Source of the DNA: Polynucleobacter sp. JS-JIR-II-50 | Lineage (GTDB): Bacteria > Pseudomonadota > Gammaproteobacteria > Burkholderiales > Burkholderiaceae | Reading direction: 5' to 3' | DNA length: 64,000 nt | Assembly: GCF_018687895.1 (NCBI RefSeq) | Contig: NZ_CP061307.1 | Span: forward strand, 1,943,948 to 2,007,947 | Shown: positions 19,746 to 57,344 of the stretch, piece after piece | Layout: each line of letters begins with the position of its first letter | How positions within the stretch are numbered: position 1 is the first letter of the stretch | Position numbers and translations under genes: made by a program | Notes under the pieces: generated by a model | Told to the model about the DNA's origin: nothing | Seen by the model: the letters and a program-made list of their open reading frames with translations, nothing else | Database searches by the model: none

Positions 19746-19786
19746 GAGGCCAGCGATATTGGCCAGAATGTCTTAGACTTGGCCTC
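19746..19786. repeat. Inverted repeat in the rfaE2/glutathione peroxidase divergent promoter region
   Basis: GAGGCCA at 19746-19752 is repeated in reverse complement as TGGCCTC at 19780-19786. An internal palindrome TGGCCA lies at 19770-19775. It occupies the middle of the 92-base divergent region and could be an operator or chance; no consensus is recognised. Confidence 0.3.
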
Positions 19787-19812: not shown

Positions 19813-20382
19813 ATGCCCCGTTTTGTAATGAACTGCCTATTTGGGCTATTTGCATTCTTGTCTGGATTTCAGCTAGCCAATGCTGCACCCACTTGCAGCC
19901 CCCTCCTCTCCCATACTTTTCCTCGCTTGCAGGATGAGGCGCCACAGAGCCTTTGCCAATATCAAGGCAAAGTCATATTGGTAGTAAACACGGCCAGCTT
20001 TTGCGGCTTTACAAGCCAATATGAGGGGCTTGAGAAGATTTACGCTAAATACAAAGATCAAGGCTTTGTCATTCTGGGATTTCCCTCCAATGACTTTGGA
20101 CAACAGGAACCTGGTAGCAACAAAGAAATTGCCGATTTCTGCAAGAACACCTATGACGTGAAATTTCCGATGTTTTCTAAGAGCACGGTTTCCGGCAGTA
20201 ACCCAAACCCCCTATTTAAGATGTTGATTGCTAAAACTGGCACAAGTCCAAAATGGAATTTTTATAAATATTTAATCGATCGAAATGGTAATGTGGTTGA
20301 TTCGTTTGGAAGCGTTACCAAACCCACCAGTAGCAGCATTACAAATGAAATTGAAAAGCTTTTAGGAGAAAAAGCTCAGTGA
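19813..20382 (+). CDS. Exported glutathione peroxidase family protein
   Basis: A 189-residue thiol peroxidase of the glutathione peroxidase family, predicted to act outside the cytoplasm. The first 25 residues (MPRFVMNCLFGLFAFLSG to ANAA) form a signal peptide. The catalytic core has the peroxidatic Cys64 in VNTASFCGFT, a Gln in GFPSNDFGQQEPGSN (about 98-99), and the tryptophan in KWNFYKYLIDR, completing the classic triad. It is the cysteine rather than selenocysteine type, and such enzymes often use thioredoxin-like reductants. It is the first gene of a five-gene operon; the next gene starts with a GTG inside its stop region (four-base overlap), so they are translationally coupled. Confidence 0.92.
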   Translation: MPRFVMNCLFGLFAFLSGFQLANAAPTCSPLLSHTFPRLQDEAPQSLCQYQGKVILVVNTASFCGFTSQYEGLEKIYAKYKDQGFVILGFPSNDFGQQEPGSNKEIADFCKNTYDVKFPMFSKSTVSGSNPNPLFKMLIAKTGTSPKWNFYKYLIDRNGNVVDSFGSVTKPTSSSITNEIEKLLGEKAQ

Positions 20383-21755
20383 GTAAAAAAAGAATTGCCA
20401 TTATTGGCGCAGGCATCTCTGGATTAGGCTGCGCCTATGCCTTAAGACAACATCCTGAATTTGAAATTACCTTATATGAAGCTGGCGATCACATTGGCGG
20501 CCATAGTAATACCGTTGATGTCACTTGCAATATCGATGGAAAAGAAATCACACACGGTGTAGATACTGGCTTCCTGGTATTTAACCGCAAGACTTATCCA
20601 CGTCTCGTTCGTTTATTCGAAGAAATTCAAGCACCAGTAGCCCCTTCGGAAATGTCTTTTTCTGTATCGATTGATACCGCCAGTAAATCTGGGGCAGGGA
20701 AAAAGATTGAATGGGCTGGTAACGACATCAATTCTTTTTTTGGACAAAGATCTAATCTTCTCTCTCCATCATTTTGGAGAATGGCCTATGACATCATGCG
20801 CTTTAATCGTTTGGCTACTCAGTTAGCGCATGACCAAATTGACGCCGGTCATCAATACAAAGAACCTGATGAAAAAATTGCCGATTTTTTAAAACGTCAT
20901 CGCTTCAGCCAAAGCTTTAAAGAGAATTACTTTCTCCCCATGATTGGCGCCATCTGGTCTTGTTCCGTCGAGCAGATGCTAGAGTTCCCCATTCAAACCA
21001 TGGTGCGCTTCTGCCATAACCATGGGCTGCTGCAAATTCAAAATCGCCCGCAATGGTTGACTATTAAGGGCGGTTCACGAGAATATGTAAAGCGCCTTGT
21101 AGCAGTAATAGAAAAGCATGGGGTGGCCATTAAAAGGGAATGTGTCCTGAGAGTGAATACAGGTCATGATGGCGGGCCAGTTGAGGTTATCAGTCAGGCT
21201 GGCTCGGCCCATTTTGATGAAGTCATCATGGCTTGTCATAGCGACCAAACATTAGATCTGGTTCATGGCATTGACCAACAATCAAGAAATATCCTGGCAT
21301 CAGTTCCATACCAAAAGAATCGAGCAATATTACATACCGATATTCGTTTCTTGCCAGATGCAAAACGTTGCTGGGCTGCCTGGAATTACACCGCTAAATC
21401 TGGCGCCAAACCCAATACAAAACAACATGTCAGCGTTAACTACTTAATTAATCGCCTACAACCACTACCAAATCAACTCCAAGACACTCAAATTATTGTG
21501 AGCTTAAATCCCTCGGAAGAGCCAGATCCAAAACTTGTGCATCAAGAGATTCACTATTCACATCCTGTCTTTGATATGAATGCGATACAAGCGCAGAAAG
21601 AGTTACCCTTAATTCAGGGTACATCATCCATTTGGTATTGCGGCGCCTGGACGGGATTTGGATTTCATGAGGATGGTTTGCGCTCCGGAGAATTAGTGGC
21701 AGAAGCTTTAATTGAAAGCATTCGTCAACCGATCAAAACCAAACAAGATGTGTAG
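20379..21755 (+). CDS. FAD-dependent oxidoreductase (amine-oxidase fold)
   Basis: A 458-residue flavoprotein starting with GTG, four bases before the upstream stop. The dinucleotide-binding loop IIGAGISGLGCAYAL is at residues 8-22, followed by an acidic residue after the second strand and an IGGHSNTVDV arginine-free variant of the amine-oxidase GG motif. The C-terminal FAD block reads IWYCGAWTGFGFHEDGLRSG. This subgroup is found beside DUF1365 and CFA-synthase-like genes in many proteobacteria. In Rhodobacter the equivalent protein is reported to act on fatty acyl chains as a desaturase in furan fatty acid synthesis (UfaD, from memory). The function here is inferred. Confidence 0.88.
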   Translation: MSKKRIAIIGAGISGLGCAYALRQHPEFEITLYEAGDHIGGHSNTVDVTCNIDGKEITHGVDTGFLVFNRKTYPRLVRLFEEIQAPVAPSEMSFSVSIDTASKSGAGKKIEWAGNDINSFFGQRSNLLSPSFWRMAYDIMRFNRLATQLAHDQIDAGHQYKEPDEKIADFLKRHRFSQSFKENYFLPMIGAIWSCSVEQMLEFPIQTMVRFCHNHGLLQIQNRPQWLTIKGGSREYVKRLVAVIEKHGVAIKRECVLRVNTGHDGGPVEVISQAGSAHFDEVIMACHSDQTLDLVHGIDQQSRNILASVPYQKNRAILHTDIRFLPDAKRCWAAWNYTAKSGAKPNTKQHVSVNYLINRLQPLPNQLQDTQIIVSLNPSEEPDPKLVHQEIHYSHPVFDMNAIQAQKELPLIQGTSSIWYCGAWTGFGFHEDGLRSGELVAEALIESIRQPIKTKQDV

Positions 21756-21758
21756 TTG

Positions 21759-22544
21759 ATGTCAGATGCCAAGATTAACTTTGGAGTAGTAAAACACCAG
21801 CGCTTGCGGCCGGCTAAGAATGCTTTTGGTTATGGAGTATTTACTATCTCCATCCCTATGCGCGGTCGTAGCGCTAATCCGAATTTACTGAGTCAAAACG
21901 GCTTAAGCGATAACCGTTGGGGTCTTTGTGCATTTTTTGATAAGGACCATGGCCTGGGAGAATCGAATAGCCTTGCTTGGATCGAAAAGATTCTTGCAGA
22001 CAATCATGTGCAACATGTCGATGGAGAAATTTGGCTTCAGACTTTTCCAAGGGTATTGGGTTACGTCTTTAATCCCGTGAGCTTTTGGATCTGTACGCGC
22101 GCTGATGGCAAAGTACAAGCAGTGTTGGCTGAGGTCAACAATACCTTTGGTGAGCGTCATTGCTATTTACTGCACAAAGATTCGGGCGAGGTGTTGCACT
22201 CCGGTGAAACACTCAGTAGCAAAAAGGTATTTCACGTTTCACCATTTTGTGCGGTACGTGGCGATTACCATTTCCGCTTCTTATTTCCGCAAGATAGTAG
22301 TAGTGGCAAGAATAATGTCTGTCGCATTGAACTTCATGAGGACGGCCAACCCCTCATCAACACCAGCATTAGTGGCACCAGCCGCCCACTTAGTCGCGCC
22401 AATATCATTCTGGCGCTACTACGCTACCCATTAATGAGCTTGGGTGTCATTTTCCGAATACATTGGCAAGCATTGAAATTGTGGGTAAAAGGTGTACCCT
22501 TTCATTCAAAGCCTAAACCACCAGAACTTGAAGTTAGCAGATGA
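21759..22544 (+). CDS. DUF1365 family protein
   Basis: A 261-residue DUF1365 protein. The ATG at 21759-21761 is preferred over an in-frame TTG one codon earlier. Conserved features include the opening GVVKHQRLRPAKNAFGYGVF, the LGYVFNPVSFW and ADGKVQAVLAEVNNTFGERHCY blocks and the KVFHVSPFC segment. The family has no fully settled biochemistry, but it always co-occurs with the FAD oxidoreductase and CFA-like methyltransferase seen here. A Rhodobacter homologue is reported to take part in furan fatty acid formation (recalled, not checked). It overlaps the next gene by four bases (ATGA). Confidence 0.88.
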   Translation: MSDAKINFGVVKHQRLRPAKNAFGYGVFTISIPMRGRSANPNLLSQNGLSDNRWGLCAFFDKDHGLGESNSLAWIEKILADNHVQHVDGEIWLQTFPRVLGYVFNPVSFWICTRADGKVQAVLAEVNNTFGERHCYLLHKDSGEVLHSGETLSSKKVFHVSPFCAVRGDYHFRFLFPQDSSSGKNNVCRIELHEDGQPLINTSISGTSRPLSRANIILALLRYPLMSLGVIFRIHWQALKLWVKGVPFHSKPKPPELEVSR

Positions 22545-23836
22545 ACCGCCCAGGACAAACCCTTCTCTCCAGACTCAATTTTTCTCGCCCACATGAGCGG
22601 GATAACGCTTCGCCGCAACACCAACTTAAGGCTAAGGCACTCCTCACCCTCCTGACGAAGCTAAGTAGTGGTCATTTAAAACTCACCCTTCCCAATGGCG
22701 AGAGGCGCGAGTTTGGTATTCAAAGTGATCATTTGCATGCTGAAATTCATATCTTGGAGTGGTCTGTCTTTAAAGAGATCATGTCTCATGGAGATATTGG
22801 CTTTGCTGAGAGCTACATTCAAGGCAAATGGAACACGCCCGACCTCAAAGCGCTGCTTGAGCTAGCCATACGCAACCGAACTATTTTGGAAAAAGCCATC
22901 TACGGCAATTGGTATGGTTCGATCTTTTATCGCCTAAAACATTGGTTGCGAGATAACAGCAAAGCGGGAAGCCGCAAAAATATCCATGCGCACTATGATC
23001 TAGGTAATGCTTTTTATACGCTGTGGCTCGATCCGACGATGAGCTACTCTAGCGCCTGGTTTTCTGAAGGAGATAAGCAAGCTTTAGCTGATGCACAGCG
23101 GGCAAAGATTGGGCGCATTCTAGAATCCTTGAAGACTGCACCAGGGGATCACATACTAGAAATTGGCTGTGGCTGGGGCGGAGTCATGGAAGAATCTCTT
23201 CGCCTCAATAGAGCCATTACTGGCCTAACTCTATCTACAGAGCAAAAAGCGTTTGCAGAGAAGCGTTTGCTAGGAGCGCAAACTCAAATAGTCAATCCTC
23301 TTGGATTTGAAGTGCGCCTTCAAGACTATCGTGATTGCCAAGAAAAATTTGATGGCATTGCTTCCGTCGAAATGTTTGAGGCAGTTGGTGAGAAACATTG
23401 GCCGGAGTATTTTGAAACAATTGCCCATTGTCTAAAAGCAGGTGGCAAAGCTTGCATCCAGACGATTGTGATAGCAGAAGATCTTTTTGATCGCTACAGA
23501 CGCAACACTGACTTTATTCAACAGTATGTATTTCCTGGTGGCATGCTGCCCTCCAGGGCAAGCTTTAAAGCAAGCGCAGCTAAGGCTGGATTACAAATTG
23601 ATGATGAATTCGCATTTGGCGGAGATTACGCAAGAACCCTTTGCTTGTGGCGTGATAGCTTTAATCAAAAACTGCAAGAAGTTCGCCAACTTGGCTTTGA
23701 TGAAGCATTCATACGCCTTTGGAACTTCTATCTCATGTATTGTGCCGCTGGCTTTACTGAGCGTAATATCGACGTAGTGCAATTCACATTGAGCCATCAA
23801 CCATCACCAGCATCTTCTGATGCACTAGGCGCATGA
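22541..23836 (+). CDS. Cyclopropane-fatty-acid synthase-like SAM methyltransferase
   Basis: A 431-residue SAM-dependent methyltransferase of the cyclopropane fatty acid synthase superfamily. An N-terminal lipid-binding-like region (about 30-125) precedes the catalytic domain, which has HYDLGNAFYTLWLDPTMSYS at 151-170 and motif I LEIGCGWGG at 206-214. The FFPGG-type segment appears as QQYVFPGGMLPS. Members act on unsaturated acyl chains of membrane phospholipids, either forming cyclopropane rings or, in the paralogue grouped with DUF1365 and FAD oxidoreductases, adding a methyl group. The operon context favours the second type. It is coupled to both neighbours by four-base overlaps. Confidence 0.92.
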   Translation: MNRPGQTLLSRLNFSRPHERDNASPQHQLKAKALLTLLTKLSSGHLKLTLPNGERREFGIQSDHLHAEIHILEWSVFKEIMSHGDIGFAESYIQGKWNTPDLKALLELAIRNRTILEKAIYGNWYGSIFYRLKHWLRDNSKAGSRKNIHAHYDLGNAFYTLWLDPTMSYSSAWFSEGDKQALADAQRAKIGRILESLKTAPGDHILEIGCGWGGVMEESLRLNRAITGLTLSTEQKAFAEKRLLGAQTQIVNPLGFEVRLQDYRDCQEKFDGIASVEMFEAVGEKHWPEYFETIAHCLKAGGKACIQTIVIAEDLFDRYRRNTDFIQQYVFPGGMLPSRASFKASAAKAGLQIDDEFAFGGDYARTLCLWRDSFNQKLQEVRQLGFDEAFIRLWNFYLMYCAAGFTERNIDVVQFTLSHQPSPASSDALGA

Positions 23837-24609
23837 AACAACAAGGCATCGATCACTTTTCAGGAAAAAGAGTTTGGGTCATTGGTGCATCGAGTGGTAT
23901 TGGCGAAGCTTGTGCGAAAGCGCTTCTTCTCAAAGGCGCGAAGGTAGCCCTTTCCAGTCGTAGAGCTGAACGATTAAATGTTATTGCCAGTACTGCAGGA
24001 GCTGATCAAACCCTCGTTACTCCATTAGACGTCACAAACAATACCCAACTGCAGGATGGCTATAAAACCCTTGTGAGTGCCTGGGGTGGGCTTGATCTAC
24101 TGCTTTTTGTATCAGGAACGTATGTACCGCTTCGCGCAGATAATTTTGATATCAAGGTTGCAGAGAAAACCATTGATGCAAACCTTCTAGGTCCAATGAG
24201 AGCGGTAGCATTGGTAATTCCGGAAATGCTCAAGGCTCACTCTGGACATATTGCTATTGTTGGTAGTGTTGCGGGGTATAGCGGCCTGCCAAAAGCCTTG
24301 GCGTATGGCCCTAGTAAGGCCGCCATCATCAATTTTTGTGAGAATTTATATTACGACTTACTGCCAACTGGAGTCAGCGTACATATGATTTCCCCCGGGT
24401 TTGTAGCTACTGAGGCTACTGCACAAAATGATTTTGAAATGCCGGCGCTCATTAGCGCAGAAGAAGCCGCTAGCGAAATTTTGGCTGGCATTCAGAAGGG
24501 GGAATTCGATATTCACTTCCCTAAGCGATTCACAAGATTCTTAAAGTTTCTGAGAATCTTGCCTTACCCAATCTACTTTTGGATTGTGCGCCGCTTCGTC
24601 AAAATTTAA
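23833..24609 (+). CDS. SDR family oxidoreductase
   Basis: A 258-residue classical short-chain dehydrogenase. The cofactor loop IGASSGIG starts near residue 17, an SSRR segment after the second strand suggests NADPH preference, and the catalytic residues appear as Ser145, Tyr158 and Lys162 (YGPSK). The C-terminus has a hydrophobic, basic stretch (FLRILPYPIYFWIVRRF) that could associate with the membrane. It is the last gene of the lipid-modification operon and overlaps the methyltransferase gene by four bases. The substrate is unknown; the context suggests a fatty acyl or oxidised-lipid derivative. It converges on dsbA. Confidence 0.88.
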   Translation: MKQQGIDHFSGKRVWVIGASSGIGEACAKALLLKGAKVALSSRRAERLNVIASTAGADQTLVTPLDVTNNTQLQDGYKTLVSAWGGLDLLLFVSGTYVPLRADNFDIKVAEKTIDANLLGPMRAVALVIPEMLKAHSGHIAIVGSVAGYSGLPKALAYGPSKAAIINFCENLYYDLLPTGVSVHMISPGFVATEATAQNDFEMPALISAEEAASEILAGIQKGEFDIHFPKRFTRFLKFLRILPYPIYFWIVRRFVKI

Positions 24610-27676: not shown

Positions 27677-27994
27677 ATGATCTATCAATTTCGCTCAAAG
27701 GCTGGTCCAGATGTCATCATGCTGGCGGATCTGACTAAACGAATCTTTGAGATTTTAGGGCGCCCCCTAGAGCCCCGTGGCATTTTGACCGTTGAGCAAC
27801 TGCCAGACCTCATCACCGCACTGGAAACTGCCATCCTCAAAGATCTGGAGGAGCGGGCTAAAGCGAATGACGAGTCCGAGAAAGGTACTCAGAAGCCTAA
27901 GCTAGCTGACCGCCTTGGACAGCGAGCCTACCCATTTTTAGAGCTCATGAAGCAGTCCAAAGCCAAAGACGAACCTGTTATGTGGGGCGTTTAA
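27677..27994 (+). CDS. DUF1840 domain-containing protein
   Basis: A 105-residue protein of the DUF1840 family, common in betaproteobacteria. It starts [19 protein letters not shown], contains the family segment [25 protein letters not shown] and ends in [23 protein letters not shown]. No catalytic motif, signal or membrane segment is visible and the function is unknown. It is divergent from argS and its end overlaps the convergent metH gene by four bases. Confidence 0.85.
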
Positions 27995-30741
27995 TCTAGC
28001 AAGCTCGCTAGCTGACGACGGGTATCTTCAATACTTTGACCGCGGCGTTTGGCTAAGTCCTCAACCTGGTCATCCGATAGCTTGCCCACATTAAAGTAGC
28101 GCGCATCCGGATGAGCCAGATAGAAACCACTCACGCTAGAAGCTGGATTCATGGCCATCGACTCTGTCAGAGTCATGCCAATATCTTCAGAGCCAATGAC
28201 CCGTAATAAATCTTCTTTAACTTCATGTGCAGGGCAGGCTGGGTAACCAGGTGCCGGACGAATACCGCGGTATTCCTCATTAATCATCTGATCATTAGTC
28301 AAAATCTCGTTGGTTGCATAGCCCCACAGATCAGTGCGCACACGATGGTGCATGAGTTCAGCAAACGCTTCTGCCAATCTGTCAGCTAGGGCCTTCAACA
28401 TAATGGCGCTGTAGTCATCATGCTTCGCCTGAAATTCAGCCACTTTCTTTTCAACACCGTGGCCAGTAGTCACTGCAAAACAACCCAGGTAATCAGTAAC
28501 GCCAGAGCCTTTTGGCGCAACATAGTCAGCCAAACAACGATTAGGTCTGCGTACACCCTCTACAACTGGACGCTCGGATTGTTGACGCAAGTTATGCCAG
28601 ACAAATAAAGGGTGCTCGCGTGCTTCATCGCTATACAAAACGATATCGTCGCCAATAGTATTAGCAGGATAAAAAGCCACCACCGCATCGGCTTGTAGCC
28701 ATTGGCCTTTAATCAACTTATCGAGTAATGCTTGAGCATCTGCAAATACCTTGCGAGCCTCAACGCCAACAACTTCATCATCCAGAATTGCAGGGAATTT
28801 GCCTGCTAAATCCCAAGTCTGAAAGAACGGTGTCCAGTCAATATATTTAGCGATATCGCTCAGTGCAAAGTTTTTAAATACACGACGGCCAATAAACTTC
28901 GGCTTCTCTGGAACATAAGCAGACCAGTCGATCATCTCGCGATTCTTACGTGCTGCCTCTAAAGAAATGGTTGGCGCCGCTTTCTTATTGGCGTGCTGTT
29001 CACGAATACGCACATAGTCATCACGCAAATCTTGAATAAATTTCTTGGCACTTTCATCAGACAGCAGGCTGGAAGCTACTGAAACTGAACGAGATGCATC
29101 AGGTACATACACCACCGGACCATCGTAATGCGGGGCAATCTTCACGGCCGTATGAACGCGTGAAGTCGTTGCACCACCAATCATTAATGGGATTTGACGC
29201 TCACGGAACCAATCATCGCGTTGCATCTCTTGCGCAACATAAGTCATTTCTTCTAGCGAAGGTGTAATCAATCCAGATAAACCAACAATATCTGCATTCT
29301 CTTCTTTGGCACGCTTGAGAATCTCTGCGCAAGGAACCATTACACCCATATTGGCTACTTCAAAGTTATTACATTGCAGAACAACGGTAACAATATTTTT
29401 ACCAATATCGTGTACGTCACCCTTCACGGTAGCCATCACAATCTTGCCCTTAGCCTTGGCTTCACCGCCTGCCGCAATATGTAGACGTTTTTCTTCTTCG
29501 ATATACGGAATCAAGATGGCAACCGCTTGTTTCATCACCCGCGCACTCTTAACCACTTGAGGCAAGAACATCTTGCCGGCGCCAAACAAGTCGCCAACGA
29601 CGTTCATACCGTCCATGAGCGGGCCTTCAATCACCTCAATTGGTCTGCCACCAGCGCCCATAATTTCAGCGCGCAACTCTTCGGTATCTTCTTCAATAAA
29701 AGTAGTAATGCCATGCACTAGAGCATGCGTTAGACGCTCACGCACGGGGGCTTCACGCCACACTAGGTTCTCGACCTGCTTAGCGCCGCCACCCTTAAAT
29801 TGATCGGCAATATCGAGCAAACGCTCGGTAGGTGTTTTGCCATCTTTTTCTTTAAAACGATTGAGGACAACATCCTCAACACGCTCACGTAACTCAGGAT
29901 CCAAATCAGCGTAAACGCCCAACTGACCAGCATTCACAATGCCCATGTCCATGCCAGCCTGAATGGCGTGATATAGAAACACAGTATGGATCGCTTCGCG
30001 GACACGATCATTACCGCGGAACGAGAAGCTCACATTAGAAACGCCACCGCTAACCTTGGCGCCCGGCAGATTTTCTTTAATCCAGCGGGTGGCATTAATA
30101 AAGTCAACCGCGTAGTTGTCATGCTCTTCAATACCGGTAGCAATTGCAAAAATATTCGGATCAAAAATAATGTCTTCTGCTGGGAAGCCAATCTCGTTTA
30201 CCAAGATCTCATAGCAGCGCTGACAGATTTCTGTCTTACGCTTAAAGGTATCGGCTTGTCCTACCTCGTCAAAAGCCATCACTACAGAAGCGGCGCCATA
30301 ACGACGAATTAAACGTGCTTGTTTTCTGAAGGACTCCTCGCCCTCTTTCAAGGAGATCGAGTTAACGATAGGCTTACCTTGAATACACTTCAAGCCCGCT
30401 TCGATAACACTCCACTTGGAGGAGTCGATCATGATAGGAACGCGTGCAATATCAGGCTCAGAGGCGATCAAATTGAGGAAGCGTGTCATCGCCGCCTCAG
30501 AATCTAACATCGCCTCATCCATATTGATGTCGATAACTTGTGCGCCATTCTCAACCTGTTGACGCGCCACAACAAGCGCCTCATCAAATTGATTATTCAA
30601 AATCATTCTGGAAAATGCTTTTGAGCCTGTGACATTGGTACGCTCACCAATATTGACGAAGCCAACATCAGCAGTAACGTTAAATGGCTCAAGACCAGAA
30701 AGCTTCATTGCTGGCATCGCTTTTTTCTCTATCTTGCTCAT
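27991..30741 (-). CDS. metH: Methionine synthase, B12-dependent, C-terminal part (folate, cobalamin and activation domains)
   Basis: Together with the upstream gene this makes cobalamin-dependent methionine synthase, which transfers methyl from 5-methyltetrahydrofolate to homocysteine. The 916 residues cover the pterin-binding domain ([14 protein letters not shown] near the start), the cobalamin cap and binding domains with the cobalt-ligand motif [10 protein letters not shown], and the C-terminal SAM-activation domain with [14 protein letters not shown]. The homocysteine-binding domain is encoded separately just upstream, overlapping by four bases. The two genes sum to about 1270 residues, close to the single-chain E. 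coli enzyme, so the split is clean and not a frameshift ruin. Confidence 0.95.
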
Positions 30742-31802
30742 ACTGATACCTCCGCATTCTCGCGATAGAAAGCGCGTGGCTTCCGCTTGGAAACCGCATC
30801 AGCAATTGCACGAATGTGCTCAGGTGTTGTGCCGCAGCAGCCACCAACCAAATTGACTAAACCGTCTTTAGCAAAACCATCTACTAGGCTAGAGGTAATT
30901 TCTGGGGTCTCATCAAAGCCCGTATCACTCATCGGATTAGGCAATCCCGCATTCGGGTAACAAGACACTGCCGCATCGCAAATTCTTGCCAGCTCTGCAA
31001 TATAAGGGCGCATTAAAGCGGCACCTAATGCACAGTTCAAGCCAAAAGTGAGCGGCTTGATGTGACGCAAACTATTCCAGAACGCCTCGACTGTTTGGCC
31101 TGACAAAATACGGCCAGATGCATCTGTCACCGTTCCAGAAATCATTACCGGCAAACGCTCACCGGTCTCTTCAAAAAATTCATCGAGGGCAAAGAGTGCA
31201 GCTTTGGCATTAAGCGTATCGAAAATAGTTTCAACCAAAAATAAGTCGACGCCGCCTGCAAATAAACCTTCAATCTGCTCACGATACGAAGCACGTAACG
31301 CATCAAAGGTCACATTGCGTGCACCTGGGTCATTAACATCCGGTGAAATACTTGCCGTCTTTGGTGTAGGCCCAATCGCGCCCGCAGCAAAACGCGGTCT
31401 TTCTGGGGTGCTGTATTTTTCACAAGCTGCGCGCGCTAATTTAGCAGAGACTTCATTCATCTCACGTGCTAAGCCAGCCATTTTGTAATCTTCTTGGGCA
31501 ACTGAAGTTGCGCCAAAAGTATTGGTTTCAATAATGTCCGCGCCAGCATCTAAGTACTGCTCATGAATCTTGCTAATAATTTGTGGCTGGGTCAAAACCA
31601 AAAGCTCATTGTTGCCTTTGATATCTCCAGGGTGATCAGCAAAACGGGTATTTCCTGGTAAGCCGCGATAGTCGGCTTCGGTTAACTTGTATTGCTGAAT
31701 CATGGTGCCCATGGCGCCATCCAAAATGAGGATGCGCTGCTTCAAAAGCTCGGGGAGCTTTTGACCACGGGTATAGAGCTGGGACAAACCATTAGATTGC
31801 AT
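30738..31802 (-). CDS. metH: Methionine synthase N-terminal part: homocysteine S-methyltransferase domain
   Basis: A 354-residue homocysteine-binding barrel. It opens with the family block [15 protein letters not shown] and has the zinc-ligand cysteines in LNCALGA and in [12 protein letters not shown]. These are the features of the first domain of MetH or of BHMT-like enzymes. The four-base overlap with the downstream gene for the other three domains means the two polypeptides are made together and must assemble. No cobalamin riboswitch is seen: only 74 bases separate it from the divergent phaM start, too short for one. It could also be described as a stand-alone homocysteine S-methyltransferase, but the context argues against that. 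Confidence 0.93.
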
Positions 31803-53625: not shown

Positions 53626-54456
53626 TTACCTTGTTAAATCTAAGTTATCCGCAATTGCTAAAACTGCATCAGCCTGATTCAGGGAATAGAAATGGATTCC
53701 AGGTGCACCAGCAGTTAACAACTGATCACACAAGTCGGTCACTACTTCTTCACCAAATGCGCGAATAGATGCAATGTCATCGCCATAGGATTGAAGACGT
53801 AAACGAATCCAACGCGGAATTTCTGCGCCACAGGCATCAGAGAATCGCAGTAATTGGCTGCTATTGGTAATCGGCATAATGCCGGCAATGATCGGCTGTG
53901 TAACACCCAACTCATAAGCCTCGTCCACAAAGCGAAAGTACGCATCGCTATTGTAAAAATACTGAGTGACAGCAGAGTTTGCGCCCGCTTTCATCTTTTG
54001 GACAAAGAAATCGATATCACTAGCAGGCGACTTCGCCTGTGGATGCGTCTCTGGATAAGCGGCTACATCGATATGAAACCAATCGCCCGTTTCTGTACGA
54101 ATAAATTCTACCAATTCATTGGCATGATGAAACTCGCCATACTGACCCATGCCAGAAGGTAAATCACCGCGCAAAGCCACAATGCGTTTCACACCTAAAG
54201 CTTGATATTGCTTGAGCATCTCGCGCACGCTTTCACGTGAGCTGCCAACACAAGATAAATGGGGGGCCACTGCTGCACCAGCAGCATGAATGTCGCTCAC
54301 CACCTTTAATGTGCCAGACTGAGTAGAGCCACCGGCACCAAAAGTCACGGAATAAAAGGCGGGCTTGAGCGTTTCAGAAAAACGCTCGCGCACCAGATGC
54401 AACTTACTCTCACCTTCAGGTGTTTTTGGAGGGAAGAATTCGACGCTTAATTCCAT
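53626..54456 (-). CDS. metF: 5,10-methylenetetrahydrofolate reductase
   Basis: Reduces methylene-THF to 5-methyl-THF, the methyl donor for methionine synthase. The 276-residue FAD-binding barrel starts MELSVEFFPPKTPEGE, with the FFPPK motif of MetF, and contains SVTFGAGGST, HLSCVGSS, ALRGDLP and the QYFYNSDAYFRF segment. The length fits the bacterial enzyme. It lies 35 bases after ahcY on the same strand, so the ahcY riboswitch may also influence it. The window holds its downstream enzyme MetH as well. Confidence 0.96.
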   Translation of the reverse strand: MELSVEFFPPKTPEGESKLHLVRERFSETLKPAFYSVTFGAGGSTQSGTLKVVSDIHAAGAAVAPHLSCVGSSRESVREMLKQYQALGVKRIVALRGDLPSGMGQYGEFHHANELVEFIRTETGDWFHIDVAAYPETHPQAKSPASDIDFFVQKMKAGANSAVTQYFYNSDAYFRFVDEAYELGVTQPIIAGIMPITNSSQLLRFSDACGAEIPRWIRLRLQSYGDDIASIRAFGEEVVTDLCDQLLTAGAPGIHFYSLNQADAVLAIADNLDLTR

Positions 54457-54491
54457 GATTTTGGGCCTAGTTATCTATTGAACAGTTTGGA

Positions 54492-55937
54492 TTAATAACG
54501 ATAGTGGTCGGCCTTGTATGGGCCTTCCTTCGTTACGCCAATGTAAGAAGCTTGCTGATCAGATAACACTGTTAACTCTGCATTCAGAGTCTTGAGCTGT
54601 AATCGGGCAACCTTCTCATCCAAATGCTTGGGCAATGTGTAAACACCGACCGGGTATTTATCTGTGCCTACTGCATTCCACAGTTCAATCTGGGCAATCA
54701 CTTGGTTTGCAAATGAAGAGCTCATGACGTATGAAGGATGTCCTGTGCCGCAACCCAGGTTTACCAAGCGTCCTTTAGCCAAAATAATGATGCGCTTTTC
54801 AGGCTTACCATTAGCGGCTGGGAAAATCACGTGATCAACTTGTGGTTTGATTTCTTCCCACTTGTATTTCTCAATACCAGCAACATCAATCTCATTATCA
54901 AAGTGACCGATGTTACAAACGATGGCTTGATTCTTCATCTTAGCCATGTGGTCATGAGTAATCACGTGGTAGTTGCCTGTTGCAGAAACAAAGATATCGG
55001 CCTTATCAGCAGCGTAATCCATTGTTACAACGCGGTAGCCCTCCATCGCAGCTTGCAATGCGCAGATTGGATCAACTTCAGTTACCCAAACTTGAGCAGA
55101 CAAAGCGCGCAATGCTTGCGCAGAACCCTTACCCACATCGCCGTAGCCGCAAACTACGGCAACCTTACCGGCAACCATTACGTCCGTCGCGCGCTTAATC
55201 GCATCCACTAAAGATTCACGGCAACCATAGAGATTGTCGAATTTGCTCTTAGTAACAGAGTCATTGACGTTGATTGCAGGAAACTTCAAGTCGCCCTTAG
55301 CAAACATTTGATACAGGCGATGTACGCCAGTAGTCGTTTCTTCTGTAACGCCCTTAACTTTTTCTAAGCGCGTTGAATACCAAGTTGGATCTTGTGCCAA
55401 TTTTTTCTTGATAGCAGCAAACAAAATAGTTTCTTCTTCGCTAGTTGAATGATTCAAGCAAGCTTGATCTTTCTCAGCGCGTGCACCAAGGTGCAACAAC
55501 AAAGTAGCATCGCCACCATCATCCAAAATCATATTGGTGTAGCCGCCATCAGCCCATTCAAAAATACGATGGGTGAAGTCCCAATATTGCTCAAGGGTTT
55601 CACCCTTGATTGCAAACACTGGTGTGCCATTCGCAGCAATGGCTGCAGCAGCATGGTCTTGTGTAGAGAAAATATTGCAAGATGCCCACTGCACTTCAGC
55701 ACCGAGTGCCTCTAGCGTCTCGATCAATACTGCAGTTTGAATGGTCATGTGCAATGAACCAGTGATGCGTGCGCCACGCAATGGCTGTTGTGCAGCAAAT
55801 TCATCACGAATGGCGATCAGGCCAGGCATTTCAGTTTCAGCAATAGCAATTTCTTTGCGGCCAAAGTCAGCCAAAGAGATATCAGCAATTGCGCAACGAG
55901 TTGCTACAAAGTTATTTAAATCAGAAACGGTATTCAT
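54492..55937 (-). CDS. ahcY: S-adenosylhomocysteine hydrolase
   Basis: Splits S-adenosylhomocysteine to adenosine and homocysteine, removing the inhibitor of methyltransferases. The start is the ATG at 55935-55937 with GGAG eight bases ahead, giving 481 residues; the frame extends 20 codons upstream into the leader. Motifs are [21 protein letters not shown], the NAD-binding loop [15 protein letters not shown], and the terminal [10 protein letters not shown]. It contains the extra internal segment typical of proteobacterial enzymes near residues 165-205. It is preceded by an SAH riboswitch (56003-56109) and followed by metF. Confidence 0.97.
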
Positions 55938-56002
55938 TAATGCTCCAGCTAAATACGATCCAATGCTGGAGTAGAAACTCGCTAGCCATTGAATCATGGG
56001 TT

Positions 56003-56109
56003 AGCGAGCGCGGTTGCAATTAGCAAACTCCGGGGTTACCTTAGAGCCCGCTCCCTTCAAGCCTGGGGAAGTGCTGGGTCTCAGCATTCCTTGCAACGCT
56101 CCTTGAAGG
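56003..56109 (-). ncRNA. SAH riboswitch in the ahcY leader
   Basis: On the minus strand, AGGAGCG (56103-56097) pairs with CGCUC (56010-56006) as P1. GGAAUGCUG and CAGCACUUCC form the hairpin P2, and the 5' CCUUCAAG (56109-56102) is perfectly complementary to CUUGAAGG (56061-56054). The last pairing is the expected pseudoknot P4 of the SAH riboswitch. The conserved UUGCAA next to P1 and the CCAGGCU sequence are also present. It lies 66 bases upstream of ahcY, the usual target; SAH binding should raise ahcY expression. The match is by eye against the consensus as I remember it. Confidence 0.88.
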
Positions 56110-56139
56110 TATGCCGTAATTGTAAACAATTACGGCATA
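56110..56139. promoter_or_regulatory. 13-bp perfect palindrome upstream of the ahcY riboswitch
   Basis: TATGCCGTAATTG at 56110-56122 and CAATTACGGCATA at 56127-56139 are exact reverse complements separated by TAAA. It directly abuts the riboswitch and lies 39 bases after metK. A TACAAT element (minus strand) sits in the centre and could be the -10 box. There is no U-run after the stem, so an operator is more likely than a terminator. Confidence 0.55.
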
Positions 56140-56177
56140 TTTCGCCTCAATACACCTACAAACTGCGTATTTTCTAC

Positions 56178-57344
56178 TTACAGACCTGCTGCCGCACGTA
56201 ATGCAGCCGCTTTATCTGTTTGCTCCCAAGTAAATTCTGGCTCTTCACGGCCAAAGTGGCCATAAGCAGCAGTCTTGCGATAAATTGGGCGCAAGAGGTT
56301 CAACATCTTCACAATACCTTTTGGACGCAAGTCAAAGTGCTCAGAAACCAATTGAGCAATCTTCTCATCCGAAATCTTGCCCGTACCGAAAGTGCTTACC
56401 ATCACTGAAGTTGGTTTAGCAACACCAATCGCGTAAGAGATCTGAATCAAGCACTTACTTGCCAAACCAGCAGCAACTACGTTCTTCGCAACATAACGAC
56501 CAGCGTATGCAGCAGAGCGGTCAACCTTAGATGGATCCTTACCAGAGAAAGCACCGCCACCGTGAGGAGCTGCGCCACCGTAGGTATCCACAATAATTTT
56601 GCGACCAGTTAAGCCGCAATCACCTTGTGGGCCGCCGATAACAAAGCGACCTGTTGGGTTTACCAAGAAGTTAATAGCGCCTTTGATCAAATGCTTAGGC
56701 AATACTGGTTTGATGATTTCTTCAATAACTGCTTCGCGCAATTTTTCGAGAGAAATTTCTTCATCGTGTTGAGTAGACAGCACAACGGTATCGATGGAGT
56801 CAGGCTTGCCATCCACATAACGCAAGGTCACTTGTGACTTCGCATCAGGGCGCAACCAGTTCAAACGGCCATCGCGACGCAACTGTGATTGACGCTCAAC
56901 CAAACGGTGTGACAAGTGAATTGGCAAAGGCATGAGCTCTGCAGTTTCATCACAAGCGTAACCAAACATGAGGCCTTGGTCGCCGGCGCCTTGATCCAAG
57001 CCATCGTCATGGGCCTTATCGACGCCTTGAGCGATATCAGGACTTTGCTTGTCATAAGCAACCAATACTGCACAACCTTTGTAATCGATACCGTAGTCAG
57101 TGTTGTCGTAGCCAATTTCACGCAAGGTATTGCGTGCAACTTGAATGTAATCAACGTTAGCGTTAGTAGTAATTTCACCAGCTAAAACTACTAAGCCGGT
57201 GTTGCACAAAGTTTCCGCTGCAACGCGTGCAGTTGGATCTTGAGCCAGGATGGCGTCTAAGATCGAATCAGAGATTTGGTCTGCTACTTTATCGGGATGG
57301 CCTTCAGAAACGGATTCTGAGGTGAAGAAGTAATCATTTGCCAT
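56178..57344 (-). CDS. metK: S-adenosylmethionine synthetase
   Basis: Makes S-adenosylmethionine from methionine and ATP. The 388-residue protein begins [26 protein letters not shown], with the methionine- and magnesium-binding HPDK segment. It contains [13 protein letters not shown] and [19 protein letters not shown], the P-loop-like motif for polyphosphate. It is the first gene of metK-(riboswitch)-ahcY-metF on the minus strand, but the ahcY leader probably has its own promoter. Upstream is a 203-base divergent gap toward the lpxL-type genes, in which I recognise no SAM riboswitch. Confidence 0.97.

What the first reader, a model, noticed from the sequence alone, without database searches (positions are those of the whole stretch)
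19813..24609. Five-gene operon: exported glutathione peroxidase coupled to a probable methyl/furan fatty acid module
Five plus-strand genes are coupled by four-base overlaps or a three-base gap: exported GPx, FAD oxidoreductase (GTG start), DUF1365, CFA-synthase-like methyltransferase, SDR. From family knowledge, FAD oxidoreductase, DUF1365 and CFA-like proteins correspond in type to UfaD/UfaO/UfaM, reported to make furan fatty acids in Rhodobacter, where related genes fall under the singlet-oxygen sigma-E/ChrR response (recalled). What seems unusual here is the coupling to a periplasmic GPx and an SDR with a basic hydrophobic tail, and the absence of the photolyase and ChrR genes seen with it elsewhere. 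It may be a membrane-lipid oxidation or photoprotection module in a sunlit-water bacterium.
Basis: partly seen in the sequence, partly recalled or inferred. Interest (0 to 1): 0.72.

Follow-up and report, generated by a model that had tools for sequence, protein, structure and literature searches.

The report
Freshwater bacterium's furan-lipid and peroxidase operon
Nearly all Polynucleobacter loci examined, from an abundant freshwater bacterium, carry one operon that joins the probable genes for light-protective furan fatty acids to a probably exported lipid peroxidase, a candidate reason why these bacteria withstand singlet oxygen in sunlit brown water.

Summary
The five-gene operon is real and under purifying selection. 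The genome is a Polynucleobacter. The FAD protein, DUF1365 protein and methyltransferase are the conserved core of the UfaD/UfaO/UfaM furan fatty acid pathway. The methyltransferase is not a cyclopropane synthase: trees separate the two groups, and the bicarbonate-binding His266 of E. coli Cfa is Gln here and in every UfaM-type row that covers the site. Published fatty acids of P. yangtzensis MWH-JaK3, whose operon is intact, include 8.1% '11-methyl C18:1w7c', the kind of acid UfaM makes. The furan itself is unreported.

The leading GPx is the lineage-specific part: 59 of 64 named Polynucleobacter-like loci hold all five genes, while 1 of 20 long loci from other genera of the family and 0 of 20 more distant loci have GPx there. 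Another subclade keeps a LitR light regulator and a photolyase beside it; the window's genome lacks LitR and ChrR but retains a conserved box before GPx. Polynucleobacter withstands singlet oxygen in humic lakes, yet a published genome analysis saw no unusual adaptation; this operon is a testable candidate. New variant of a known kind.

The parts
19769..19779 (+). Conserved box TGTCTTAGACT, 33 bases between its end and the GPx start codon; probable operator or promoter element
   Evidence: 13 of 13 LitR-bearing loci carry two related boxes 62-63 bp apart between LitR and GPx; 40 of 68 LitR-less loci have a copy with at most 1 mismatch in the 330 bp scanned (strains fetched twice are counted twice); the only exact TGTCYTAGACW in the 2.07 Mb genome (backwards control 5), so its conservation, not its count, is notable. 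Function inferred.
19813..20382 (+). Cys-type glutathione peroxidase with a signal-like N-terminus, PHGPx/PgpD-like
   Evidence: Pfam GSHPx; Cys64, Gln98, Cys110 in 79 of 79 and Trp148, Asn149 in 78 of 79 aligned rows, the other being a gap
20379..21755 (+). UfaD-type FAD oxidoreductase (predicted methyl-fatty-acyl desaturase), GTG start
   Evidence: Pfam; next to DUF1365 in relatives; 289-303 bits against the FAD protein of the five f54 (RSP1091-1087-like) loci L141-L145
21759..22544 (+). UfaO-type DUF1365 protein (predicted oxygen insertion / furan closure); alternative TTG start at 21756
   Evidence: Pfam DUF1365; 19 invariant columns in 37 rows; confident beta-barrel model, pLDDT 93; no solved homologue by sequence at E<=1 or by Foldseek at E<=0.001
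22541..23836 (+). UfaM-type SAM-dependent fatty acyl methyltransferase
   Evidence: Pfam CMAS; signature S-E-E-A-Q-I-Y at E. coli Cfa 139/236/239/240/266/268/317; trees
23833..24609 (+). SDR of the operon family (RSP1087-like position); role unknown, probably dispensable for the furan acid
   Evidence: adh_short; 282 bits to the operon SDR of another genus of the family (L084); RSP1087 deletion had no detectable effect on the fatty acids (PMC7380195, passages)

Best explanation
This is a furan fatty acid operon of the UfaM/UfaD/UfaO kind, led by a probably exported glutathione peroxidase. Proposed mechanism: UfaM methylates cis-vaccenoyl chains on membrane phospholipid to 11-methyl-12-trans-18:1; UfaD desaturates that to the methyl diene; UfaO (DUF1365) inserts an oxygen atom from O2 to give a methyl-furan fatty acid, an intramembrane sink for singlet oxygen. 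The GPx, on the periplasmic side, reduces the lipid hydroperoxides that photo-oxidation leaves. The SDR is an accessory of unknown step. Shown here: operon, gene families, conservation of the core, methyltransferase clade, selection. Supported by print: an acid named like the first product, in a strain with the operon. Inferred: the furan product, the GPx site and role, the link to singlet-oxygen resistance, the regulator.
For: Core FAD-DUF1365-MT order recurs across the phylum. MT falls with UfaM-type proteins, separate from Cfa: SH-aLRT 99, 98/98 with five signature columns removed. Of 132 operon MT rows (116 distinct sequences), 129 read SEEAQIY or AEEAQIY and 3 are fragments, one of which covers the His266 column and reads Gln; 12 Cfa-type proteins from 12 genomes plus E. 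coli K-12 Cfa read CGEHHIY, as does L267, which the score limit had left out. Glu239, His266 and Tyr317 bind the catalytic bicarbonate in Cfa (PMC11387697, passages). Only one strong CMAS protein in the whole genome (265 bits; the next are 31 and 24). P. yangtzensis MWH-JaK3 (locus L171, full operon; SEEAQIY) has 8.1% 11-methyl C18:1w7c; three other type strains 3.1, 1.1 and 4.2% (PMC5018217 Table 4). A Halomonas ufaM in E. coli gave a new 11-methyl-18:1 peak (PMC12089945, passages). Pathway and dispensability of RSP1087-1089: PMC7380195 (abstract and passages). Light link: LitR, DPRP photolyase and FolE2 beside the operon in another subclade; P. mendocina ufaM, in a cluster with SDR and FAD genes, is induced 25-33 fold by blue light (PMC9758184, passages). 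Polynucleobacter PnecC rises or is unaffected under photosensitised singlet oxygen (PMC3965437, abstract and passages).
Against: No furan fatty acid is reported for Polynucleobacter in the passages I read; the fatty acid table stops at the methyl acid. That acid was named by a fatty-acid library as w7c, which on paper is not the 12-trans isomer, so identity with the UfaM product is assumed. 'Summed feature 7' in the same table (0.4, 2.0, 0.3, none) is ambiguous, so a trace cyclopropane acid is not excluded. The module is separable: two MAG loci keep GPx without the lipid genes (L209, L223) and two genomes have the lipid genes without GPx at the locus (L065, L074), so GPx is not required for the pathway. 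The same PnecC phylotype falls after H2O2, which an extra peroxidase does not explain. No named R. sphaeroides or R. palustris protein was compared. The DUF1365 fold gave no mechanism.
Confidence: 0.77

Rival explanations
1. The methyltransferase is an ordinary cyclopropane fatty acid synthase and the operon modifies membranes by ring formation.
For: Pfam CMAS and NCBIfam name the protein after Cfa, but below each equivalog cut-off. Solved Cfa structures are its nearest solved relatives by sequence.
Against: Both trees place it outside the Cfa group; His266->Gln and Cys139->Ser; no cyclopropane acid is named in the fatty acid table of four type strains ('cyclo' 0 occurrences).
Confidence: 0.04
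2. The pathway stops at methyl-branched unsaturated acids (11-methyl-18:1 and perhaps its diene); UfaD and UfaO homologues act on something else.
For: Only 11-methyl C18:1w7c is in the published table. DUF1365 of more distant class members is far from that of the window (66-91 bits for L149-L155), so the family may be mixed in function.
Against: All three genes are kept in fixed order with dN/dS of 0.02-0.07. The window DUF1365 scores higher against that of the R. sphaeroides-like f54 operons (147-162 bits, L141-L145) than against L149-L156 (66-122 bits). Furan acids are outside routine fatty acid libraries (recalled).
Confidence: 0.15
3. GPx is a co-transcribed neighbour without a functional tie to the lipid genes.
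For: GPx and the lipid genes are each found without the other at this locus in a few genus members (L209, L223; L065, L074).
Against: GPx leads the operon in 59 of 64 named loci and, with LitR and FolE2, in a genome of another genus (L084). In S. oneidensis the periplasmic GPx belongs to the RpoE2/ChrR regulon that also holds cfa and phrB (PMC4336711).
Confidence: 0.25

Closest known systems
UfaM/UfaD/UfaO furan fatty acid pathway of Rhodobacter sphaeroides and Rhodopseudomonas palustris (PMC7380195)
   Same: Same three protein families; FAD and DUF1365 genes adjacent; an SDR gene at the place of RSP1087 in the look-alike operon L141.
   Different: All three genes plus a GPx in one operon; no sigmaE-ChrR; in R. 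sphaeroides ufaM lies far from ufaD and ufaO (PMC12089945) and the operon also holds RSP1088 and RSP1089 (DUF3833 and MFS in L141).
LitR/PplR light-inducible ufaM cluster of Pseudomonas putida and P. mendocina (PMC9758184)
   Same: SDR, FAD oxidoreductase and UfaM in one operon; LitR regulator, photolyase and a GTP cyclohydrolase in the regulon, as in the LitR-bearing Polynucleobacter loci.
   Different: No GPx named there in the passages read; FolE rather than FolE2; site TGTACA-N12-TGTACA rather than TGTCYTAGACA; LitR is missing from the window's genome.
RpoE2/ChrR regulon of Shewanella oneidensis with periplasmic glutathione peroxidase PgpD (PMC4336711)
   Same: Exported GPx and a cfa/photolyase operon under one photo-oxidative control.
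   Different: GPx sits in a separate operon with hemH2, not fused to the lipid genes; ChrR present.
Cyclopropane fatty acid synthase (E. coli Cfa, L276; PDB 6bqc, 5z9o, 7qos)
   Same: CMAS family; Glu239, Ile268 and Tyr317 kept.
   Different: Cys139->Ser, Gly236->Glu, His240->Ala, His266->Gln; separate clade.

Membership tests
UfaM/UfaD/UfaO furan fatty acid operon | SAM methyltransferase of the UfaM clade, not Cfa | tested here: met
   the UfaM side is anchored by operon context, not by a named UfaM
UfaM/UfaD/UfaO furan fatty acid operon | DUF1365 protein (UfaO) next to an FAD oxidoreductase (UfaD) | tested here: met
UfaM/UfaD/UfaO furan fatty acid operon | Direct orthology to the named R. 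sphaeroides / R. palustris proteins | not tested
   No named sequence was fetched.
UfaM/UfaD/UfaO furan fatty acid operon | Makes 11-methyl-18:1 (UfaM product) | tested here: inconclusive
   Published for a strain whose locus I hold with the operon (P. yangtzensis MWH-JaK3, 8.1%; PMC5018217 Table 4; L171); double-bond isomer not settled, the window's own strain not analysed, cause not tested
UfaM/UfaD/UfaO furan fatty acid operon | Makes a furan fatty acid | not testable with these tools
   Needs GC-MS
sigmaE-ChrR (ECF11) regulon | ChrR anti-sigma factor in the genome | tested here: not met
   TIGR02451: best G000 match 27.3 bits against a cut-off of 124.5; 4 of 4 f47/f54 genomes searched with it pass
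LitR/CarH light regulon | MerR + B12-binding regulator beside the operon | tested here: not met
   No match at E<=0.001 in G000; beside the operon in 7 of 22 genus genomes searched
Cyclopropane fatty acid synthase | Bicarbonate ligands Glu239, His266, Tyr317 | tested here: not met
   His266 is Gln (ligands from PMC11387697); the other two are kept
Glutathione peroxidase (GPx/PHGPx) | Catalytic Cys-Gln-Trp-Asn (set recalled) | tested here: met
Glutathione peroxidase (GPx/PHGPx) | Export to the periplasm | tested here: inconclusive
   Signal-like N-terminus by eye only; PgpD export shown by PhoA fusion in another species

The most novel reading that the evidence does not exclude
The unexplained singlet-oxygen resistance of Polynucleobacter in humic lakes rests on this operon: furan fatty acids trap singlet oxygen in the membrane and the coupled exported peroxidase clears the hydroperoxides, run without ChrR by a light circuit whose LitR part was later lost in the window's lineage. 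UfaM works by a re-tooled Cfa active site in which the bicarbonate-binding His is Gln, so that the carbocation loses a proton from the chain and not from the methyl group.
Probability: 0.35. Interest if true: 0.76.

Novelty: new variant of a known kind. Interest (0 to 1): 0.6.

Why it matters
P. necessarius subsp. [quoted passage not shown] A genus-wide operon joining a GPx to the furan-lipid genes is a concrete, deletable candidate. The UfaM/Cfa signature also gives a simple sequence test to re-annotate 'cfa' genes and a mutational route into how one fold makes either a cyclopropane or a methyl alkene.

Tried and rejected
Rejected: cyclopropane synthase; SDR as the novel part; control by ChrR in this genome.

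Led nowhere: sigma-70 promoter scan (5 found against 7.3 in shuffles, none before GPx). Box count in seven LitR genomes: 10 of 20 hits lie in the LitR-GPx gap, the other 10 are no more than the backwards control (17), so no wider regulon was found. Foldseek of the DUF1365 model gave only weak matches, mostly lipocalin- or fatty-acid-binding-like (none at E<=0.001, TM by query length 0.27 or less among the 50 rows shown), so no cofactor or mechanism could be read from the fold. Literature: a search for a UfaM active-site study (19 papers, 8 listed) and searches joining Polynucleobacter with furan, UfaM, LitR or photolyase terms (42 papers, 20 listed, 170 papers, 10 listed) showed no listed title or abstract start that reports the operon or the signature; unlisted papers were not seen.

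Considered but confounded: three small single-contig genus genomes have a broken or missing lipid module (G017: MT in pieces; G102: FAD in pieces, DUF1365 frameshifted, no MT found at the locus; G105: no DUF1365), and none of the three has an intact DPRP photolyase. This fits a light function, but such genomes may be pseudogene-rich ciliate endosymbionts (PMC5018217 describes P. necessarius so), and DPRP is also absent or in pieces in 2 of 19 other genus genomes (G015, G062), so it proves nothing. Two more genus genomes show two DUF1365 matches each (G410, G443), possibly broken copies, and were not examined.

A first catalytic-Gln column was mis-picked (Gln97) and corrected (Gln98). Rows dropped: in the methyltransferase set, ORFs under 150 bits to the window protein, and one search hits without a locus, were not used; of the 30 loci only L267 was lost this way, and it reads like Cfa. 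The tree used 67 of 155 rows, one search used 42. In both trees the groups were named by the signature. Residue numbers Cys139, Gly236, His240 and Ile268 of Cfa come from the alignment and recall; only Glu239, His266 and Tyr317 are named.
Full report
WHAT IS THERE. The five genes stand exactly as described. The genome is one 2.07 Mb contig. Its ArgS protein is 97% identical to that of two named Polynucleobacter strains, so the window is a Polynucleobacter.

CONSERVATION. DUF1365 is in 147 of 151 genomes of the genus (116 of 117 of good quality), 200 of 398 of the family and 135 of 299 of the phylum. I read gene order in 20 genus loci chosen towards divergent members, 27 family loci (20 of about 16 kb, 7 of 3.7 kb) and 20 loci from other families, and in 80 named loci drawn by ArgS, independent of the operon. 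Of the 80, 16 are titled Pandoraea, Caballeronia, Burkholderia, Trinickia or Cupriavidus. Of the other 64, 59 have all five genes, 3 are cut by contig ends (L174, L201, L208), and 2 have GPx but no lipid genes (L209, L223; both MAGs). Of the 38 titled Polynucleobacter, 37 have all five; L223 is the exception. None of the 16 other-genus loci shows the operon beside ArgS, but L227 ends 0.6 kb past ArgS and says nothing. In the 20 unnamed genus loci GPx is present in 18; L065 and L074 have the lipid genes without it; L064 and L076 have broken lipid genes. All five genes of the window are under purifying selection (dN/dS 0.02-0.08 against nine relatives).

WHAT IS SHARED AND WHAT IS SPECIAL. The core FAD-DUF1365-MT recurs across the phylum. 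In 8 of 9 loci from other orders of the class (L149-L156) the order is SnoaL-like, SDR, FAD, DUF1365, MT; in L157 SDR lies nearby on the other strand. In L141, from another class (Rhodobacteraceae-like by layout, not by name), it is FAD, DUF1365, MFS, DUF3833 (186 aa), SDR (243 aa), beside a sigma-like gene and ChrR. That is the layout of RSP1091-1087, whose RSP1088 has 186 and RSP1087 245 residues (PMC7380195, passages). The SDR is thus ordinary, and its R. sphaeroides counterpart was dispensable for the fatty acids. GPx before the core was found in 1 of 20 long family loci outside the genus (L084) and in one of the 7 short ones (L105; the other 6 begin or end at the FAD gene, so a GPx could not be seen), and in 0 of 20 loci from other families. 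The GPx lead is the lineage-specific part.

ORIGIN AND CONTROL. In another subclade of the genus the order is LitR (divergent), GPx, FolE2, FAD, DUF1365, MT, SDR, SnoaL-like (L067, L068, L071-L073, L075 and named L216, L218, L220, L221; L066 and L219, one contig, lack FolE2). LitR is MerR plus B12-binding. L084, from another genus, shares LitR-GPx-FolE2, so I infer that this is the older state and that the window's lineage lost LitR and FolE2. Next to LitR lies a DPRP photolyase in L223, and its homologue adjoins LitR in 7 of the 7 genus genomes searched that have LitR (positions). In G010, without LitR, the photolyase faces GPx directly. The window's genome has no LitR match and no ChrR over the cut-off, but keeps a DPRP photolyase and a second photolyase elsewhere. 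Between LitR and GPx, 13 of 13 LitR loci carry two boxes like TGTCCTAGACA, 62-63 bp apart; 40 of 68 LitR-less loci keep one with at most 1 mismatch, TGTCTTAGACT, often about 45 bp before GPx (chance level 2 of 193 blocks of the window, one of which may hold this site). The regulator that would use it in the window's lineage is unknown.

THE METHYLTRANSFERASE. Aligned to E. coli K-12 Cfa (L276), the window protein has Ser, Glu, Glu, Ala, Gln, Ile, Tyr where Cfa has Cys139, Gly236, Glu239, His240, His266, Ile268, Tyr317. Of 132 operon rows 120 read SEEAQIY, 9 AEEAQIY and 3 are fragments (116 distinct sequences: 106, 7 and 3). Eight unlinked or contig-cut rows read SEEAQIY; 12 proteins from 12 other genomes plus E. 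coli Cfa read CGEHHIY, and so does L267. Glu239, His266 and Tyr317 hold the catalytic bicarbonate (PMC11387697, passages). Trees split the two groups: SH-aLRT 99 with 67 rows; bootstrap 98 and SH-aLRT 98 with 42 rows after removing columns 139, 236, 239, 240 and 266. The own genome has only one strong CMAS protein. That the Gln re-directs proton loss is my inference.

PRODUCT IN PRINT. PMC5018217 (passages and Table 4) lists 11-methyl C18:1w7c at 3.1, 8.1, 1.1 and 4.2% in four Polynucleobacter type strains and names no cyclopropane acid. The 8.1% strain, MWH-JaK3 (P. yangtzensis), is locus L171 here, with the operon intact. UfaM of R. sphaeroides makes 11-methyl-12-trans-18:1; that the library name w7c stands for it is assumed. 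A Halomonas ufaM expressed in E. coli gave a new 11-methyl-18:1 peak (PMC12089945, passages; cyclic acids were seen there too, in a host with its own cfa). No furan acid is mentioned for Polynucleobacter ('furan' 0 occurrences), but routine libraries would not name it (recalled). 'Summed feature 7' is ambiguous.

MECHANISM. Methylation, desaturation and oxygen insertion on phospholipid chains follow PMC7380195 (abstract and passages). GPx has the catalytic Cys, Gln, Trp, Asn and a second conserved Cys. Clearing lipid hydroperoxides outside the inner membrane is inferred from family knowledge and from PgpD of S. oneidensis (PMC4336711, passages). UfaO remains the least understood step: a confident beta-barrel model with no solved relative.

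ECOLOGY. PMC3965437 (abstract and passages): the PnecC phylotype, 99% 16S identity to strain QLW-P1DMWA-1, rises or is unaffected after photosensitised singlet oxygen and falls after H2O2. PMC3308952 (passages): the genome of that strain showed 'no unusual adaptations' to oxidative stress; a putative GPx, Pnuc_1970, is listed. The 2,159,490-base genome G026 (a size I recall for that strain; identity not proven) has the same five-gene operon and the box. The operon therefore makes an open ecological question testable. H2O2 sensitivity of the same phylotype shows that the GPx is no general peroxide shield.

VERDICT. A real, nearly genus-wide furan-lipid operon of a known kind with a lineage-specific GPx lead and probable light-regulated ancestry; the furan and the resistance are still to be shown.

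Noticed in passing
window 27991-31802 (-): Methionine synthase appears as two adjoining genes (354 aa and 916 aa) instead of one MetH; read from the translations only.
   Followed up: no
window 53626-57344 (-): Genes that look like methylenetetrahydrofolate reductase, S-adenosylhomocysteine hydrolase and SAM synthetase follow one another, a methyl-cycle cluster in the same window as a SAM-dependent lipid methyltransferase; named from the translations only.
   Followed up: no
L236: A contig titled as a MAG of Thermoflexus hugenholtzii carries the Polynucleobacter-type ArgS/DsbA/GPx-FAD-DUF1365-MT-SDR locus; probably mislabelled or contaminated.
   Followed up: no
L209:13118-13130 and L223:7166-7377: GPx (L209) or FolE2 (L223) now lies next to DsbA: the lipid genes are missing while GPx stays, a natural loss (if the MAGs are right) that could serve as a comparison.
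   Followed up: partly
L076 (G102), L064 (G017): The lipid genes are decaying in small genus genomes (FAD in pieces and MT not found in L076; MT in pieces in L064).
   Followed up: partly
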